The notes below the pieces were generated by a model. It saw nothing but the letters and a program-made list of their open reading frames with translations. It ran no database searches and was not told where the DNA came from. 36,002 nucleotides of DNA from Magnetococcales bacterium (GTDB lineage Bacteria > Pseudomonadota > Magnetococcia > Magnetococcales > UBA8363), in NCBI GenBank assembly GCA_015228925.1, contig JADGCQ010000032.1:1-36002 (forward strand), in the 5' to 3' direction. How positions within the stretch are numbered: the first letter of the stretch is position 1; every line of letters begins with the position of its first letter. Made by a program: the position numbers and the translations under genes. Positions 3,691 through 36,002 of this stretch are shown here, piece after piece.

Positions 3691-3717
3691 CACCCCATCC
3701 ATATACCCCCGTTGTAA

Positions 3718-3866
3718 GGGTCGCAAAAAGAATCAATCATTCCATCTCGCTTGCCTTTTGGCCCGCCACTCGCGTTGCGCAAAGGGTTACTACAGCCCGT
3801 AGTAGCACCTTGTCGGCGAACCAAAATTCGGCGCGATTCTGGGATAATTGATTCTTTCCGCGACCC
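3718..3866. mobile_element. MITE-like element with 26-bp terminal inverted repeats
   Basis: The left end (3718-3743, beginning GGGTCGC) and right end (3841-3866, ending GCGACCC) are inverted copies, with the AAAGAATCAAT core conserved in both and about four mismatches. The 149-bp unit is flanked on each side by TAA (3715-3717 and 3867-3869), which would fit a short target duplication. A small internal hairpin, TACTAC/GTAGTA, lies at 3788-3804. No coding capacity is seen. The structure suggests a non-autonomous miniature transposable element. No transposase is present here, and the family cannot be named. Confidence 0.5.
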
Positions 3867-3886
3867 TAAGACACCTTTTGGTTCTC

Positions 3887-3920
3887 CACGCACCCTTTGA
3901 CCCGAAGCATTTTTCACGCG
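3887..3920. repeat. Fragment of the CCCGAAGCATTTTT repeat, fused to the 3' end of brnA
   Basis: This stretch aligns closely with 18186-18219 inside the large palindrome (shared CACGC, CCC, CCGAAGCATTTTT and CGCG). It supplies the premature stop codon of the brnA gene on the minus strand. It therefore looks like an inserted or recombined piece of a dispersed repeat family. Confidence 0.55.
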
Positions 3921-11381: not shown

Positions 11382-11400
11382 CGTATCGTGTTGCAATCGA

Positions 11401-11456
11401 TTGAAAGAAAAAAGGGGTCTGGGGGATTGCCCCCAGGGTTTTGACCTTAAACAAAA
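11401..11456. repeat. Dispersed hairpin repeat, copy 1
   Basis: An A-rich lead, then GGGGTCT, a stem CTGGGGG/CCCCCAG with loop ATTG, then GGTTTTGAC. The core is identical to the copies at 18090, 18522 (inverted) and 35950. It lies between the divergently placed ends of acr3 and the SbcD-like gene region. On the minus strand it lies between the start of the SbcD-like gene and the acr3 stop codon. It is not followed by a clean T tract, so it is a repeat rather than an ordinary terminator. Confidence 0.8.
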
Positions 11457-16335: not shown

Positions 16336-17484
16336 ATGGTTCCTCCTGGTTCGACTGTCGGTTGCCCAAACCCATGGTATTACCGTGTGTGGATGATCGG
16401 GTTGGTCGGTGTGTTCTTTTGGGGACTCGTAGGGTATCGGCAACAATGGCAGCGGGGACTTGCCGTGACCGCCCTGAGTGACCAAACCCCTTGGGGGTTG
16501 TATATTGCCAATTTTTTGTTTTTGGTGGGGATCGCCGCATCGGCAGTCGTCCTTTTGGCAGCGGTCCAATTGTTTCACCGTCAGGATTTGTCGCCAACCC
16601 TTCTTCCCGCCAAAGCTTTGGCGATCACCGCCGTTTTGATGAGTCTGCTGTTTGTCACCGCAGATCTGGGACACCCGGAAAGGATCTGGCATGCCTTACC
16701 GCTCCTGGGTTCCCTGAATTTTCCCACATCCATCCTTGCTTGGGATATTTTGGCTCTTTCGGCCTATCTGTTGCTCAACATGGGTTTGGTATGGCGTCAA
16801 TCCAGAACCATGACCCCATCGGCACCCCCATCCCAACATACCGTCGGCATGGGTTCCATCCTCGCCATCGTCCTGGGTCTTTCCATTCATACCATTACCG
16901 CCTTCATGCTTGCCGGCACCCCCTCCCGCCCCATGTGGTTCAACCCTCTTTTGGCACCACGGTTTATCGTGTCCGCATTTGCTGCCGGTTCCGCTTTGAT
17001 GATCATCCTGTTTTTGATCTTAAACCGCTGGGGTGTATTTTCCCTGCCCCAATCGGCTATCCGTTTTCTTTCCCAGGTGCTGACCGCAACCCTTCTGATC
17101 CATCTTTTTTTGTTGGGTGTCGAATCTTTTTCCCATGTTTATCCTGTTGTCCACCAAGGTGGTGTTGACCATCATGCAACTCCTTGGACCCTTTGGACCC
17201 AGGTTGCCATCGGATTGAGCGTCCTGGCAACCCTCATCATGATTTATCCCCGTTGGCGGATGAATCGGCAAATGGTTGCAATTGCTTGCGGCTTTGCTTT
17301 GACGGGAATATGGATGGAGAAGGGGTTGGGGTTGGTGATCGCAGGACTCAATCCGACACCATTGGGCGAGTGGGTTGTCTATATCCCATCAGCGGTTGAA
17401 ATTCAAATTTCTCTGGGTATCTGGGCGTTTGGGGCCTTGCTTTTGACAGAACTGTTGCGGTGGATTGTTCGTCACCGTTCATAG
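16336..17484 (+). CDS. NrfD/DsrP-like polytopic membrane subunit (quinone-interacting), orphan
   Basis: A 382-residue integral membrane protein with roughly nine to ten hydrophobic helices. The region TALSDQTPWGLYIANFLFLV and the later ADLGHPERIWH fit the NrfD/PsrC superfamily, membrane anchors of polysulfide, tetrathionate, nitrite and DsrMKJOP-type complexes that exchange electrons with quinone. The ATG at 16336 is chosen because AGGTG precedes it; ATG 16276 or an earlier start would add unlikely N-terminal sequence. No iron-sulfur or catalytic partner gene lies nearby, which is unusual. It converges on a DsrE-like gene, with stop codons overlapping by six bases. A sulfur-metabolism role is inference from those two families. 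Confidence 0.8.
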   Translation: MVPPGSTVGCPNPWYYRVWMIGLVGVFFWGLVGYRQQWQRGLAVTALSDQTPWGLYIANFLFLVGIAASAVVLLAAVQLFHRQDLSPTLLPAKALAITAVLMSLLFVTADLGHPERIWHALPLLGSLNFPTSILAWDILALSAYLLLNMGLVWRQSRTMTPSAPPSQHTVGMGSILAIVLGLSIHTITAFMLAGTPSRPMWFNPLLAPRFIVSAFAAGSALMIILFLILNRWGVFSLPQSAIRFLSQVLTATLLIHLFLLGVESFSHVYPVVHQGGVDHHATPWTLWTQVAIGLSVLATLIMIYPRWRMNRQMVAIACGFALTGIWMEKGLGLVIAGLNPTPLGEWVVYIPSAVEIQISLGIWAFGALLLTELLRWIVRHRS

Positions 17485-18057
17485 TCGGATGATGGCGCGG
17501 GAATCCTGGTGGTCCAGATCGGGTAGCGGCATGTTCTTCTTGAAAACATTCATGGCGATCAAGGCTTCCATGATGGCCATGGTGTTTGCGTTTAGGCTGG
17601 CCAAATCGGCCAGGGATTTCCATTTTCTATTCGATACGGCGAAGAGGGTCACGGACAGATCACATCCGGCCAGCCCTGTGGCGATGCGCAACCCTTCCTG
17701 TGCCAGTTCTGGATCGCCATCCAGATGAATACCGAAACCGGCGACGGGGCCACATGTGCCGTTGGGCCAGCAGGCGACCTTTTCGCTTTTGTGGAGGAGT
17801 TGGCCCAGGGTTGCGAGACTGCCCGCTTGGTTGGCGGGGGCGGGGAGTGGTCCTCGATGGTTTTCATGGTCAAACGCGCAATAAACGCGCTGTCCCTGGG
17901 GAAGTTTTGGGAACTTTTGATCGACCAAGCCAACTCCGTGATGGAGGAAAAACAGGTGGCAACTTTCCAGTCCAGGAAATGGCTGTAGAATCGCCATGAT
18001 ATCGTCCATGACATGGCCACGTTGCGTGATGATGAGTGTAAGACTTTTGGTGGACAT
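17479..18057 (-). CDS. DsrE-like protein, two half-domains
   Basis: A 192-residue cytoplasmic protein. The first half (MSTKSLTLIITQRGHVMD to PLPAPANQAG and KVACWPNGTCG) and the second (PELAQEGLRIATGLAGCDLSVTLFAVS to LNANTMAIMEALIAMNVF) each resemble the beta-alpha pattern of DsrE/DsrF-type proteins. Those proteins are usually ~120 residues and act as sulfur carriers through a conserved Cys. Candidate cysteines are in ACWPNGTC. A duplicated or fused form is the simplest reading. Family membership is judged from pattern only; it could be a more distant relative. Its start lies 33 bases from the edge of the large palindromic element. The convergent NrfD-like gene suggests a shared sulfur context. 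Confidence 0.6.
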   Translation of the reverse strand: MSTKSLTLIITQRGHVMDDIMAILQPFPGLESCHLFFLHHGVGLVDQKFPKLPQGQRVYCAFDHENHRGPLPAPANQAGSLATLGQLLHKSEKVACWPNGTCGPVAGFGIHLDGDPELAQEGLRIATGLAGCDLSVTLFAVSNRKWKSLADLASLNANTMAIMEALIAMNVFKKNMPLPDLDHQDSRAIIRL

Positions 18058-18128
18058 GCGCGAATCTTTGTTACCCCCCTAGAAAATTATTAAAAGAAAA
18101 AAGGGGTCTGGGGGATTGCCCCCAGGGT

Positions 18129-18180
18129 TTTGACTTTGACTTTGACTTTGACTTTGACTTTGATTTTGACTTTGACTTTG
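18129..18180. repeat. TTTGAC tandem hexamer array
   Basis: Eight full hexamers and a partial one: five TTTGAC, one TTTGAT, two TTTGAC, then TTTG. The opposite arm (about 18459-18486) has about half as many, mixed TTTGAT and TTTGAC when read on the minus strand. Unit number thus differs between arms of the same palindrome, which indicates slippage after the inversion arose. Confidence 0.85.
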
Positions 18181-18338
18181 TTTTTCACGCGCCCCTTATC
18201 CCGAAGCATTTTTTTTCGCGCTTTTTGTTTTTGCGAAAAAAAATGCGCAGGGCGCGCGCCTTGGTTTGCCTTTTTTCGCGGTTTTTGCGCAAATATGGCA
18301 AACACACTGCAATGTTTAAACGCCAACCCTGGCATGAT

Positions 18339-18377
18339 GCTTAAGGTTTTTCGCAAAAGACGCGAAAAACCTTAAGC
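18339..18377. repeat. Perfect 16-bp stem hairpin at the core of the palindrome
   Basis: GCTTAAGGTTTTTCGC at 18339-18354 is the exact reverse complement of 18362-18377, with a seven-base loop. It lacks a T tract on either side. It may be a terminator-like or cruciform structure, and it marks the centre of the larger inverted repeat. Confidence 0.75.
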
Positions 18378-18568
18378 TAAGGTGCGCGCCCTGCGCATTT
18401 TTCCCTTGAAAAGAAGAGGCGCGGGAAAAATGCTTCGGGATAAGGGGCGCGTGAAAAAAATCAAAATCAAAATCAAAGTCAAAACCCTGGGGGCAATCCC
18501 CCAGACCCCTTTTTTCTTTTAATCATTTTATCGAATGTCAATACGCCCTGGGGCCAACGAATGGATAA

Positions 18569-19360
18569 TCAATCTTTTTCACGCATCAAGTTGGGATTGG
18601 CCGGGTCAATAATTTCATCATCCAAAGATTTTCCCGACAACAGGCGCATCATCCCTGCAACGGGAGAAATAGTTCCCTTGGCCACAGCGGATGCCGAAAC
18701 TTGTTTCCGAGCCATTTCACAACCGCCCGCCCCATCCAAGGCAATTCCTGTCCCCCCCAGACCACAATATCCCCCAGGGTTCTTGGCCAGATATTGCTGG
18801 TGGTAGCCCTCGGCATAATAAAATGTGGGGAGTGGAACGATCTCTGTCGTTATTGTGCCCTGTCCTGCCAAAGTAAGATTGTCCTGGTAGCGTGATCGTG
18901 TCGATAAGGCATGTTGGTGCTGTTCTTCGTTGGCGTAATAGATCCCAGAGCGATATTGGGTTCCGACATCGTTGCCTTGACGCATCCCTTGGGTGGGATC
19001 ATGCGCTTCCCAAAAGTGTTTCAACAGGTTCTGATAACGGATGACACGGGGATCAAAGATGACAAGTACCACCTCATTGTGTCCCGTCCTTCCAGAACAA
19101 ACCTCTTCATAGGTGGGGTTTGGGGTGATTCCACCCGCATATCCCACGGCGGTGGCATACACCCCTTTTTGTTTCCAGAACAACCGCTCGGCCCCCCAGA
19201 AGCAACCCAATCCCAACAGGGCCGTTTCCACGGGGGCAGGGAAGGGGGGGGTGATGGAATTTCCGGTCACATAATGCCGTGAAGGGATGGCCAGAGGGAC
19301 CGTCCGTCCTGGAAGGGCTTCCGCTGGTGCAGGCAACGTCATCTTATGATTCAGAGCCAT
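18569..19360 (-). CDS. msrA: Peptide methionine sulfoxide reductase MsrA
   Basis: A 263-residue protein that reduces methionine-S-sulfoxide in proteins. The catalytic motif [11 protein letters not shown] holds Cys53. Downstream are [26 protein letters not shown] and the [10 protein letters not shown] region, and the resolving Cys199 in [12 protein letters not shown]. No signal peptide, so cytoplasmic. It carries ~55 residues beyond the usual end, including [19 protein letters not shown]. This extension is not typical of E. coli-type MsrA and is not recognised. No MsrB gene is nearby. It lies downstream of ppk2 on the same strand, but a hairpin separates them. Confidence 0.95.
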
Positions 19361-35207: not shown

Positions 35208-35900
35208 TCAGAGCAGTTTTACCAGCGCAGCCATGGCCCCGACGGCCACGAACATCAGGCTCCCAAGCTTGATGACCATGCGCTGTTCGAGTTCTTTGAG
35301 ATCCCGCTTCAAGTTTGACTGGACCAACTCGATCTTGGCATCCAGTTCCTTGAACCGGATATCAACTTCTTTGAACCGGACTTCAATCTTTGCGTCTATT
35401 TCCTTGAACCGGACTTCAAATTTTGTGTCCATCTCCTTGAATTGGACTGCAACTTTTGTGTCCATCTCCTTGAATTGGACTGCAACTTTTGTGTCCAGTT
35501 CCTTGAACTGGACTTCAACCTTTGTGTCCAGTTCCTTGATATCCCGCCGCAACTCTGATCGGACCGTCTCGACCTTGATATCAAGTTCCTTGATGTCTCG
35601 CTTCAATTCCGACCGGATCGACTCGATTTTGACATCCAGTTCTTTGATGTCCCGCTTCAAGTTTAATTGGAGCGACTCGCTCTTAACATCAAGTTCCTTG
35701 ATGTTCTGCTTCACATCGGCCCGGGATGACTCGATATCCCGCTTCAAGTCTGCCCGGACATGTTCCAGTTCCAGTTTGGTGGCCAACCGGTCTTCCATCC
35801 ACTCGACGAGGGTCTCCGCCTGTATTTCCGCCTGGGCCTCGGGCACGCCAGCAGCTTTTAATTTTTTGGTATAGGCCAGCGAGTCAAACATGAGCGACAT
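35208..35900 (-). CDS. Coiled-coil membrane-anchored protein (DUF1640-like)
   Basis: A 230-residue protein. The N-terminus FDSLAYTKKLKAAGVPEAQAE resembles the start of DUF1640/CCDC90-type proteins. From ~45 to ~200 there is a long coiled coil of repeated RDIKELDVK and 11-residue MDTKVAVQFKE units, the latter duplicated almost perfectly at DNA level (35430-35495). A single C-terminal hydrophobic helix (LGSLMFVAVGAMAALVKLL) anchors it. The family is common in repeat-rich genomes and has no proven bacterial function. It is flanked downstream of its start by the dispersed hairpin repeat (35950), fifty bases away. The Ser/Thr-rich frame on the other strand is only a mirror of these repeats. Confidence 0.8.
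   Translation of the reverse strand: MSLMFDSLAYTKKLKAAGVPEAQAEIQAETLVEWMEDRLATKLELEHVRADLKRDIESSRADVKQNIKELDVKSESLQLNLKRDIKELDVKIESIRSELKRDIKELDIKVETVRSELRRDIKELDTKVEVQFKELDTKVAVQFKEMDTKVAVQFKEMDTKFEVRFKEIDAKIEVRFKEVDIRFKELDAKIELVQSNLKRDLKELEQRMVIKLGSLMFVAVGAMAALVKLL
35430..35495. repeat. 33-bp in-frame tandem repeat in the coiled-coil gene
   Basis: Two 33-base units containing TTGAATTGGACTGCAACT sit head to tail, encoding two identical 11-residue MDTKVAVQFKE blocks. More diverged units flank them, so the coiled coil appears to lengthen or shorten by whole 11-residue steps. Confidence 0.75.
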
Positions 35901-35949
35901 GGTAAGTTTCCCTTATTTTTCTAGGGCGTGTTGACATTAAATAAAAGTA

Positions 35950-36002
35950 TTAAAAGAAAAAAGGGGTCTGGGGGATTGCCCCCAGGGTTTTGATTTTGTT
36001 TT
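35950..36002. repeat. Dispersed hairpin repeat, copy at window end
   Basis: It begins TTAAAAGAAAAAAGGGG and carries the same CTGGGGG/ATTG/CCCCCAG hairpin as 18090, followed by GGTTTTGATTTTG. It runs off the window, so a larger palindrome like that at 18090-18522 may continue beyond. Confidence 0.8.

What the first reader, a model, noticed from the sequence alone, without database searches (positions are those of the whole stretch)
18090..18522. Large nested palindrome built from several repeat modules
A 433-bp non-coding unit has at least four layers of inverted sequence: outer GGGGGATTGCCCCC hairpins, unequal TTTGAC arrays, a CCCGAAGCATTTTT module, and GC-rich inner arms around a perfect 16-bp hairpin. 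Modules recur separately elsewhere (11401, 35950, and 3887 for the GAAGCATT module), so this looks like a composite mobile palindromic element. It could extrude as a cruciform or be transcribed into a highly folded RNA.
Basis: partly seen in the sequence, partly recalled or inferred. Interest (0 to 1): 0.65.

Follow-up and report, generated by a model that had tools for sequence, protein, structure and literature searches.

The report
Giant nested-palindrome transposon family (Magnetococcales)
The 447-base palindrome is one of roughly 165 copies of a gene-less jumping-DNA family in a magnetotactic-coccus (Magnetococcales) genome, and it is unusual because the same palindromic core travels inside the end sequences of at least two unrelated transposons, apparently borrowing both their enzymes.

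Summary
The palindrome is real. It spans 18083-18529, lies between msrA and an unknown gene, and folds far better than chance (z about -24). The genome is a Magnetococcales MAG holding about 327 half-modules (lower bound), i.e. about 165 palindromes, most resolved ones intergenic; many contigs end inside one. All copies share a near-invariant ~50-nt inverted terminal core. Inside sits a multi-hairpin 'A' interior (as here) or a shorter 'B' interior. Outside sit different transposon ends. One set matches an ISAs1-family IS in the same genome (CAGGG ends, 10-bp target duplications, one clean empty site in a sister species). Another matches IS66-family ends (GTAA, 8-bp duplications). This copy carries a third, unassigned outer arm; its locus is occupied in two sister species and empty in five congeners. 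So it is a non-autonomous palindromic element (MITE-like), probably mobilised in trans. Interior types combine freely with outer ends and seem to be exchanged and inverted. Stems covary without sense-strand G-U bias, pointing to DNA-level maintenance. RAYT mobilisation is not supported: two RAYT-like genes exist but lack flanking copies. The core also looks like a bidirectional terminator (inferred).

The parts
18067..18082 (+). left outer arm (eroded end of the third, unassigned 'F2' outer type: TTTGTT-ACCCCCCTAG)
   Evidence: comparison with other ends, e.g. L059/L038 ...CGATAATTTGTTGATACCCCCCTAG
18083..18132 (+). left conserved terminal core AAAATTATTAAAAGAAAAAAGGGGTCTGGGGGATTGCCCCCAGGGTTTTGA, nearly invariant in 101 ends of this genome
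18129..18182 (+). left hexamer array (TTTGAC/TTTGAT/TTTGTT, about 9 units), variable in length between copies
18181..18213 (+). left arm of inner stem P1 (33 nt, 100% complementary to 18426-18458)
18206..18246 (+). hairpin a1
   Evidence: (I11)
18246..18263 (+). left strand of stem P2 (GCGCAGGGCGCGCGCCTT)
18264..18303 (+). hairpin b1, tip CGCGGTTTTTGCG
18306..18338 (+). weak central hairpin c, asymmetric, gives the interior a direction
18339..18377 (+). hairpin b2 (perfect 16-bp stem)
   Evidence: (I9)
18379..18397 (+). right strand of stem P2
18395..18433 (+). hairpin a2
18426..18458 (+). right arm of inner stem P1
18459..18484 (+). right hexamer array (about 4 units)
18480..18529 (-). right conserved terminal core (reverse complement of the left one)
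18530..18550 (-). right outer arm, F2 type: CAGGGCGTATTGACATTCGAT
17479..18057 (-). flanking gene, 192 aa, no family assigned; conserved neighbour of msrA in the genus
18569..19360 (-). flanking gene msrA (peptide methionine sulfoxide reductase)
11394..11449 (+). truncated half copy of the family (core plus start of a B-type interior)
35923..36002 (+). half copy (F2 outer arm plus core) cut by the contig end
3878..3920 (+). isolated fragment resembling the A-type P1 arm

Best explanation
The palindrome is one copy of a high-copy, gene-less palindromic transposable element family (MITE-like) of Magnetococcales. A ~50-nt inverted terminal core encloses a DNA-hairpin interior (type A here, type B in other copies). 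The core is in turn enclosed in the terminal repeats of resident insertion sequences: ISAs1-type in some copies, IS66-type in others, and an unassigned third type in this copy. DDE transposases of those IS act in trans on the outer ends and move the whole palindrome, mostly into intergenic DNA. Because every copy shares the core arms, recombination or gene conversion exchanges the interiors between copies and flips them in place. Shown: copy number, anatomy, matching IS ends with family-typical target duplications, the resident ISAs1-family IS, empty sites, and free combination of interiors with outer types. Inferred: trans-mobilisation itself, exchange through the arms, the mobility of the third and 'bare' classes, and a side effect as bidirectional transcription terminator.
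For: About 327 core half-modules in the genome, control pattern 2+2. The core is near-invariant in 101 ends and conservation drops outside it. Resolved pairs converge, 27 complete in the 1.06-Mb sample. A 1.4-kb IS at L206:2123-3538 has CAGGGCAATCGCATTTGAAATT ends, a 374-aa ISAs1-family transposase (NF033564, 404 bits) and a 10-bp duplication ACTGGTTTTG. Palindromes with the same ends have 10-bp duplications: ACTGGTTCGG 10/10 in L061, CGRTGTCCCC 9/10 in L040. The A-type insertion at L036 has an empty orthologous site in G004. IS66-type ends (GTAA...) carry 8-bp duplications ACGCCTGG (L183) and ACAATATA (L185), and CTTCAATG (L066, read); an IS66 transposase C-terminus with such an end is in the genome. 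Family-typical features are documented in PMC11946415. This locus: element in G000 and G004, 26-106-bp gaps in five congeners. Interiors: A in G000 but B in G004 at one site; interior here 95% identical to G004 only when inverted, 173/182, score 304 against 114. 39 of 90 stem pairs have changed on both sides; G-U 36 against A-C 38 on the sense strand.
Against: The parent transposon of this copy's own outer arms (F2) was not found and no target duplication was detected for this copy. Nearly half of the sampled ends (47 of 101) are bare, without recognisable IS ends or duplications. The ISAs1/IS66 link is therefore shown for part of the family only. The inversion rests on a contig end inside a palindrome and could be misassembly; the A/B difference lies next to an assembly gap on one side. 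The genome of the sister species is only 78% complete.
Confidence: 0.72

Rival explanations
1. A host-beneficial element: a bidirectional intrinsic terminator/insulator (or nucleoid/cruciform site) that the host keeps and spreads; mobility is incidental.
For: The terminal core has A-tract, GGGGTCTGGGGG stem and T-tract on both strands; terminator-like sites are 8 against 1.3 expected in the region. Copies are enriched between convergent genes (9 of 26, against 41 of 317 gaps >100 bp) and rare between divergent genes (2 of 26 against 81 of 317). The core is near-invariant.
Against: Presence differs between sister species at the same loci and between congeners; target duplications and IS ends mark insertion; avoidance of promoters alone explains the placement. 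msrA and its neighbour have kept their order without it in five congeners.
Confidence: 0.15
2. A REPIN/RAYT-type system: two inverted REP-like hairpins moved by a Y1 tyrosine transposase.
For: Inverted pair of hairpins around a spacer, high copy number, intergenic, bare copies without duplications; two RAYT-like genes in the genome.
Against: Neither RAYT gene has the core or a GC-rich hairpin of this type within the sequence held around it; no GTAG or CGTC tag at the core hairpin; 8- and 10-bp duplications belong to DDE transposases; the unit is 150-450 bp, longer than usual for REPINs.
Confidence: 0.08
3. A structured non-coding RNA gene family whose fold is under selection at RNA level.
For: Very stable, conserved multi-branch fold with covariation.
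Against: No Rfam match; no excess of G-U over A-C on the strand of co-directional flanking genes (36 against 38); occurs in both orientations to transcription; type B shares the core but not the fold.
Confidence: 0.04
4. An assembly artefact (hairpin chimeras at contig ends).
For: Many contig ends lie in the palindromes (37 of the first 100 listed places are within 70 bp of a contig start); N runs in some copies.
Against: Complete copies inside contigs in four separately assembled species genomes, with unique flanks, duplications and orthologous empty sites.
Confidence: 0.01

Closest known systems
MITEs derived from ISAs1-family insertion sequences (nearest annotated IS: ISAzs12, Azospirillum, 70% aa)
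   Same: CAGGG terminal repeats, 10-bp target duplications, no genes, autonomous IS in the same genome
   Different: The inside is not a deleted IS but a nested palindrome shared with elements that have other IS ends
MITEs with IS66-family ends
   Same: GTAA-starting ends with 8-bp target duplications; IS66 transposase remnant with a matching kind of end in the genome
   Different: Same foreign core inside; the exact parent of the G000-type end GTAACCGTTCAGACCCCC was not found
REPINs / BIMEs (inverted REP hairpins with RAYT)
   Same: Inverted pair of GC-rich hairpins, high copy, mostly downstream of genes
   Different: No RAYT linkage, no GTAG/CGTC tag, longer, DDE-type duplications on part of the copies
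TIMEs (Tn3-derived miniature elements forming mosaic transposons, PMC4133298)
   Same: Non-autonomous elements with modular, exchangeable contents
   Different: TIMEs keep one Tn3-type end set; here one core occurs inside end sets of unrelated IS families

Membership tests
MITE of the ISAs1 family (subset of copies) | Terminal inverted repeats matching a resident autonomous IS of the family | tested here: met
   CAGGGCAATYGCATTTGRAAT ends, 107 places genome-wide at up to 2 mismatches; IS at L206:2123-3538 with the same ends
MITE of the ISAs1 family (subset of copies) | 10-bp target duplications | tested here: met
   L061 10/10, L040 9/10, IS itself 10/10; L067 and L175 8/10; feature documented in PMC11946415
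MITE of the ISAs1 family (subset of copies) | Empty orthologous site | tested here: met
   L036 against G004
MITE of the ISAs1 family (subset of copies) | Trans-mobilisation by the IS transposase | not testable with these tools
   needs a transposition assay
MITE with IS66-family ends (subset of copies) | GTAA-starting ends and 8-bp target duplications | tested here: met
   L183 ACGCCTGG, L185 ACAATATA; L066:8821 CTTCAATG; family features in PMC11946415; 2 of 5 two-sided cases show no exact duplication
MITE with IS66-family ends (subset of copies) | Autonomous parent with the same end | tested here: inconclusive
   Partial IS66 at a contig end with GTAACTGCCCAGGTACCCCC, like the ends used in G006 but not the G000-type end
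MITE (this copy, 18083-18529) | Target duplication and identified parent IS | tested here: not met
   No duplication detected; outer arm type F2 without identified parent. Insertion itself is supported by five congeners with a short gap
REPIN/RAYT | Repeat flanks a RAYT gene | tested here: not met
   criterion from PMC3116915
REPIN/RAYT | GTAG or CGTC tag at the foot of the hairpin | tested here: not met
   consensus core; criterion from PMC3733652
Known RNA family (Rfam 15) | Score above a family's gathering threshold | tested here: not met

The most novel reading that the evidence does not exclude
A palindromic 'passenger' that is not a derivative of any one insertion sequence but has acquired the terminal repeats of two or three unrelated transposon families, so that several transposases spread the same core, while its hairpin interiors are exchanged and inverted through the shared arms.
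Probability: 0.4. Interest if true: 0.72.

Novelty: new variant of a known kind. Interest (0 to 1): 0.5.

Why it matters
Bacterial MITEs are usually derivatives of one parent transposon. Here one palindromic core sits inside the ends of at least two unrelated DDE transposon families, with interchangeable interiors. That makes it a natural test of how non-autonomous elements change transposase, and of how about 165 long palindromes, which are usually unstable in bacteria, persist in one genome. It also explains much of the fragmentation of this genome assembly: many contig breaks lie in the palindromes. Long reads would resolve them.

Tried and rejected
RAYT mobilisation: Y1 genes present but without the core nearby. 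Rfam: no match. RNA-level selection: G-U 36 against A-C 38 on the sense strand of co-directional copies. The covariation alone cannot separate RNA from DNA, because arm-to-arm conversion gives the same pattern. Ectopic recombination between elements as cause of chromosome rearrangements: left and right flanks were located in G004; most informative pairs are colinear or end at contig ends, so not supported; several right flanks were not found in that incomplete genome, and one copy with mismatched ends (L218, ISAs1 left, IS66 right) keeps the idea open. Target duplications for bare copies: none convincing; the search over both flanks of all copies gave only a modest excess of good matches over permuted pairs, and the clear ones belong to copies with IS-type ends. 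An autonomous element between two core ends: L066:3540-5890 turned out to carry a HaeII-type restriction-modification pair, not a transposase. Spread on plasmids or phages: no matches. My order-wide pattern search was mis-specified, with five instead of four loop bases, and says nothing about the core's distribution; the 61-genome BLAST is used instead. The own-genome count used the same loop length and is a lower bound.

Full report
OBSERVATION. Outer arms 18083-18155 / 18457-18529 (73 nt, 95% complementary), inner arms 18181-18213 / 18426-18458 (33 nt, 100%), 18239-18293 / 18348-18402 (55 nt, 82%) and a perfect 16-bp hairpin at 18339-18377 are nested. The fold is about 24 standard deviations better than shuffles, both as ssDNA and as RNA. 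It lies in the gap between msrA (18569-19360, minus) and a 192-aa gene of no known family (17479-18057, minus).

GENOME AND COPY NUMBER. The window is a whole contig (C145) of a 4.25-Mb, 219-contig genome. A pattern for the core hairpin matches 161 + 166 times, against 2 + 2 for the reversed control. Because the pattern allowed one loop base too many, this is a lower bound; about 165 palindromes follow if each has two ends. 37 of the first 100 listed places lie within 70 bp of a contig start, and the window itself ends inside a copy. In 1.06 Mb fetched from this genome, paired core ends converge and 27 complete palindromes of about 150-450 bp were resolved. All eight genomes of the genus matched by BLAST, 28 of 61 genomes overall, none outside the order among those tested. 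No match in plasmids, phages or viral contigs.

ANATOMY. From outside to inside: (1) an outer arm of variable type; (2) a core, AAAATTATTAAAAGAAAAAAGGGGTCTGGGGGATTGCCCCCAGGGTTTTG, near-invariant in 101 ends; (3) a hexamer array (TTTGAC and variants) of variable length; (4) one of two interiors. Type A, as in the window, has stem P1, hairpins a1 and a2, stem P2 and a top of three hairpins b1-c-b2. The tips of b1 and b2 are conserved (CGCGGTTTTTGCG and its complement) while the stems differ. Type B is shorter and unrelated in sequence. In 15 A-type copies from three species 39 of 90 pairs have at least one change on both sides that keeps the pair. On the strand of co-directional neighbouring genes, non-Watson-Crick transition pairs split evenly, G-U 36 against A-C 38, so nothing favours RNA over DNA as the level at which the arms stay matched.

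OUTER ARMS ARE TRANSPOSON ENDS. Extending the flanks shows families with sharp outer limits. One family begins CAGGGCAATYGCATTTG. The same sequence bounds a 1.4-kb IS on C194 (L206:2123-3538) coding for a 374-aa ISAs1-family transposase, with duplication ACTGGTTTTG on both sides. The nearest annotated IS, ISAzs12 (70% aa), also has CAGGG ends and, in the Azospirillum plasmid copy read here, a 10-bp duplication. Palindromes with these ends carry 10-bp duplications (10/10 in L061, 9/10 in L040, 8/10 in L067 and L175). The second family begins GTAACCGTTCAG or GTAACTGCCCAGG, as IS66 elements do; duplications are 8 bp, ACGCCTGG, ACAATATA and CTTCAATG. A partial IS66 transposase with end GTAACTGCCCAGGTACCCCC lies at a contig end. 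Both rules (CAGGG with 10 bp, GTAA with 8 bp) are described in PMC11946415. A third type (F2, TAGGGCGTGTTGACATTCGATAA), which flanks the window's own copy, has no identified parent. 47 of 101 sampled ends are bare. A- and B-type interiors occur with each of the three outer types.

INSERTION AND TURNOVER. At the window's locus, G000 and G004 carry the element between msrA and the 192-aa gene; G001, G002, G005, G006 and G007 have the same gene pair with gaps of 26-106 bp. At L036 an ISAs1-ended A-type palindrome is absent from the colinear site of G004. At L066:8821 the two sister species have IS66-ended B-type palindromes in the same convergent gap, about 20 bp apart, in opposite orientation and with different duplications (CTTCAATG; CGCTGATR), i.e. 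two independent insertions. At L069 G004 keeps the outer arms but lacks core and interior. Copies are enriched between convergent genes (9 of 26 against 41 of 317) and scarce between divergent ones (2 of 26 against 81 of 317).

EXCHANGE AND INVERSION. At L032:2718 G000 has an A-type and G004 a B-type interior between orthologous flanks. In the window's copy the interior matches the orthologous G004 interior over 173 of 182 positions only when inverted (score 304; 114 in the direction of the flanks; best of all copies compared). Caveat: the G004 copy ends at a contig end, and a palindrome can mislead an assembler; the L032 case has an assembly gap on one side.

MECHANISM. Shown: a dispersed, gene-less palindromic element with IS-type ends and duplications on part of its copies. 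Inferred: DDE transposases of ISAs1 and IS66 type recognise the outer ends and move the palindrome; shared core arms let copies exchange and flip interiors; bare copies are eroded or moved by an unknown route. The core reads as a terminator on both strands, so insertion between co-directional genes, as here, may uncouple them; untested.

COMPARISON. By ends and duplications, subsets of the family are MITEs of ISAs1 and IS66 type. The copy in the window belongs to the family by its core and interior, but not by tested ends. It works like a REPIN in being a dispersed hairpin pair but fails the RAYT-linkage and tag tests. What I did not find described, in a limited literature search, is one palindromic core inside the ends of unrelated IS families.

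Noticed in passing
L066:3540-5890 (G000:C162): Between proB and proA lies a family copy, then a C5 cytosine methyltransferase and a HaeII-type restriction endonuclease gene, then another family end; a restriction-modification pair bracketed by palindrome ends.
   Followed up: partly
G025 and G007 (other Magnetococcales genomes): Other dispersed GC-rich hairpins: 156 matches, mostly GGGTCTGGGGGCNGCGCCCCCAGCG-like, in G025 and 75 matches in G007, many of them GGGTTTGGGGGCGAAGCCCCCAAGG; possible unrelated REP families.
   Followed up: no
window 35287-35759: Direct repeats with 54- and 33-base spacing inside the ORF 35208-35900 (minus), suggesting a repetitive, perhaps coiled-coil protein.
   Followed up: no
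window 3717-3744 / 3840-3867: A separate imperfect inverted repeat (28 nt, 86%) next to the isolated A-type fragment at 3878-3920.
   Followed up: no
L064:10467 and L078:3715 against G004:C156 and C11: Where G000 has a palindrome, G004 has about 10.5 kb and 2.2 kb of extra DNA between the same flanks.
   Followed up: partly
L218:1490-1693 (G000:C184): A copy with mismatched ends, ISAs1-type on the left and IS66-type on the right; possibly a recombinant of two elements.
   Followed up: partly
L034:12615-13067, L076:6931-7339: Hexamer arrays of many units (about 20 in L034), so array length varies strongly between copies.
   Followed up: no
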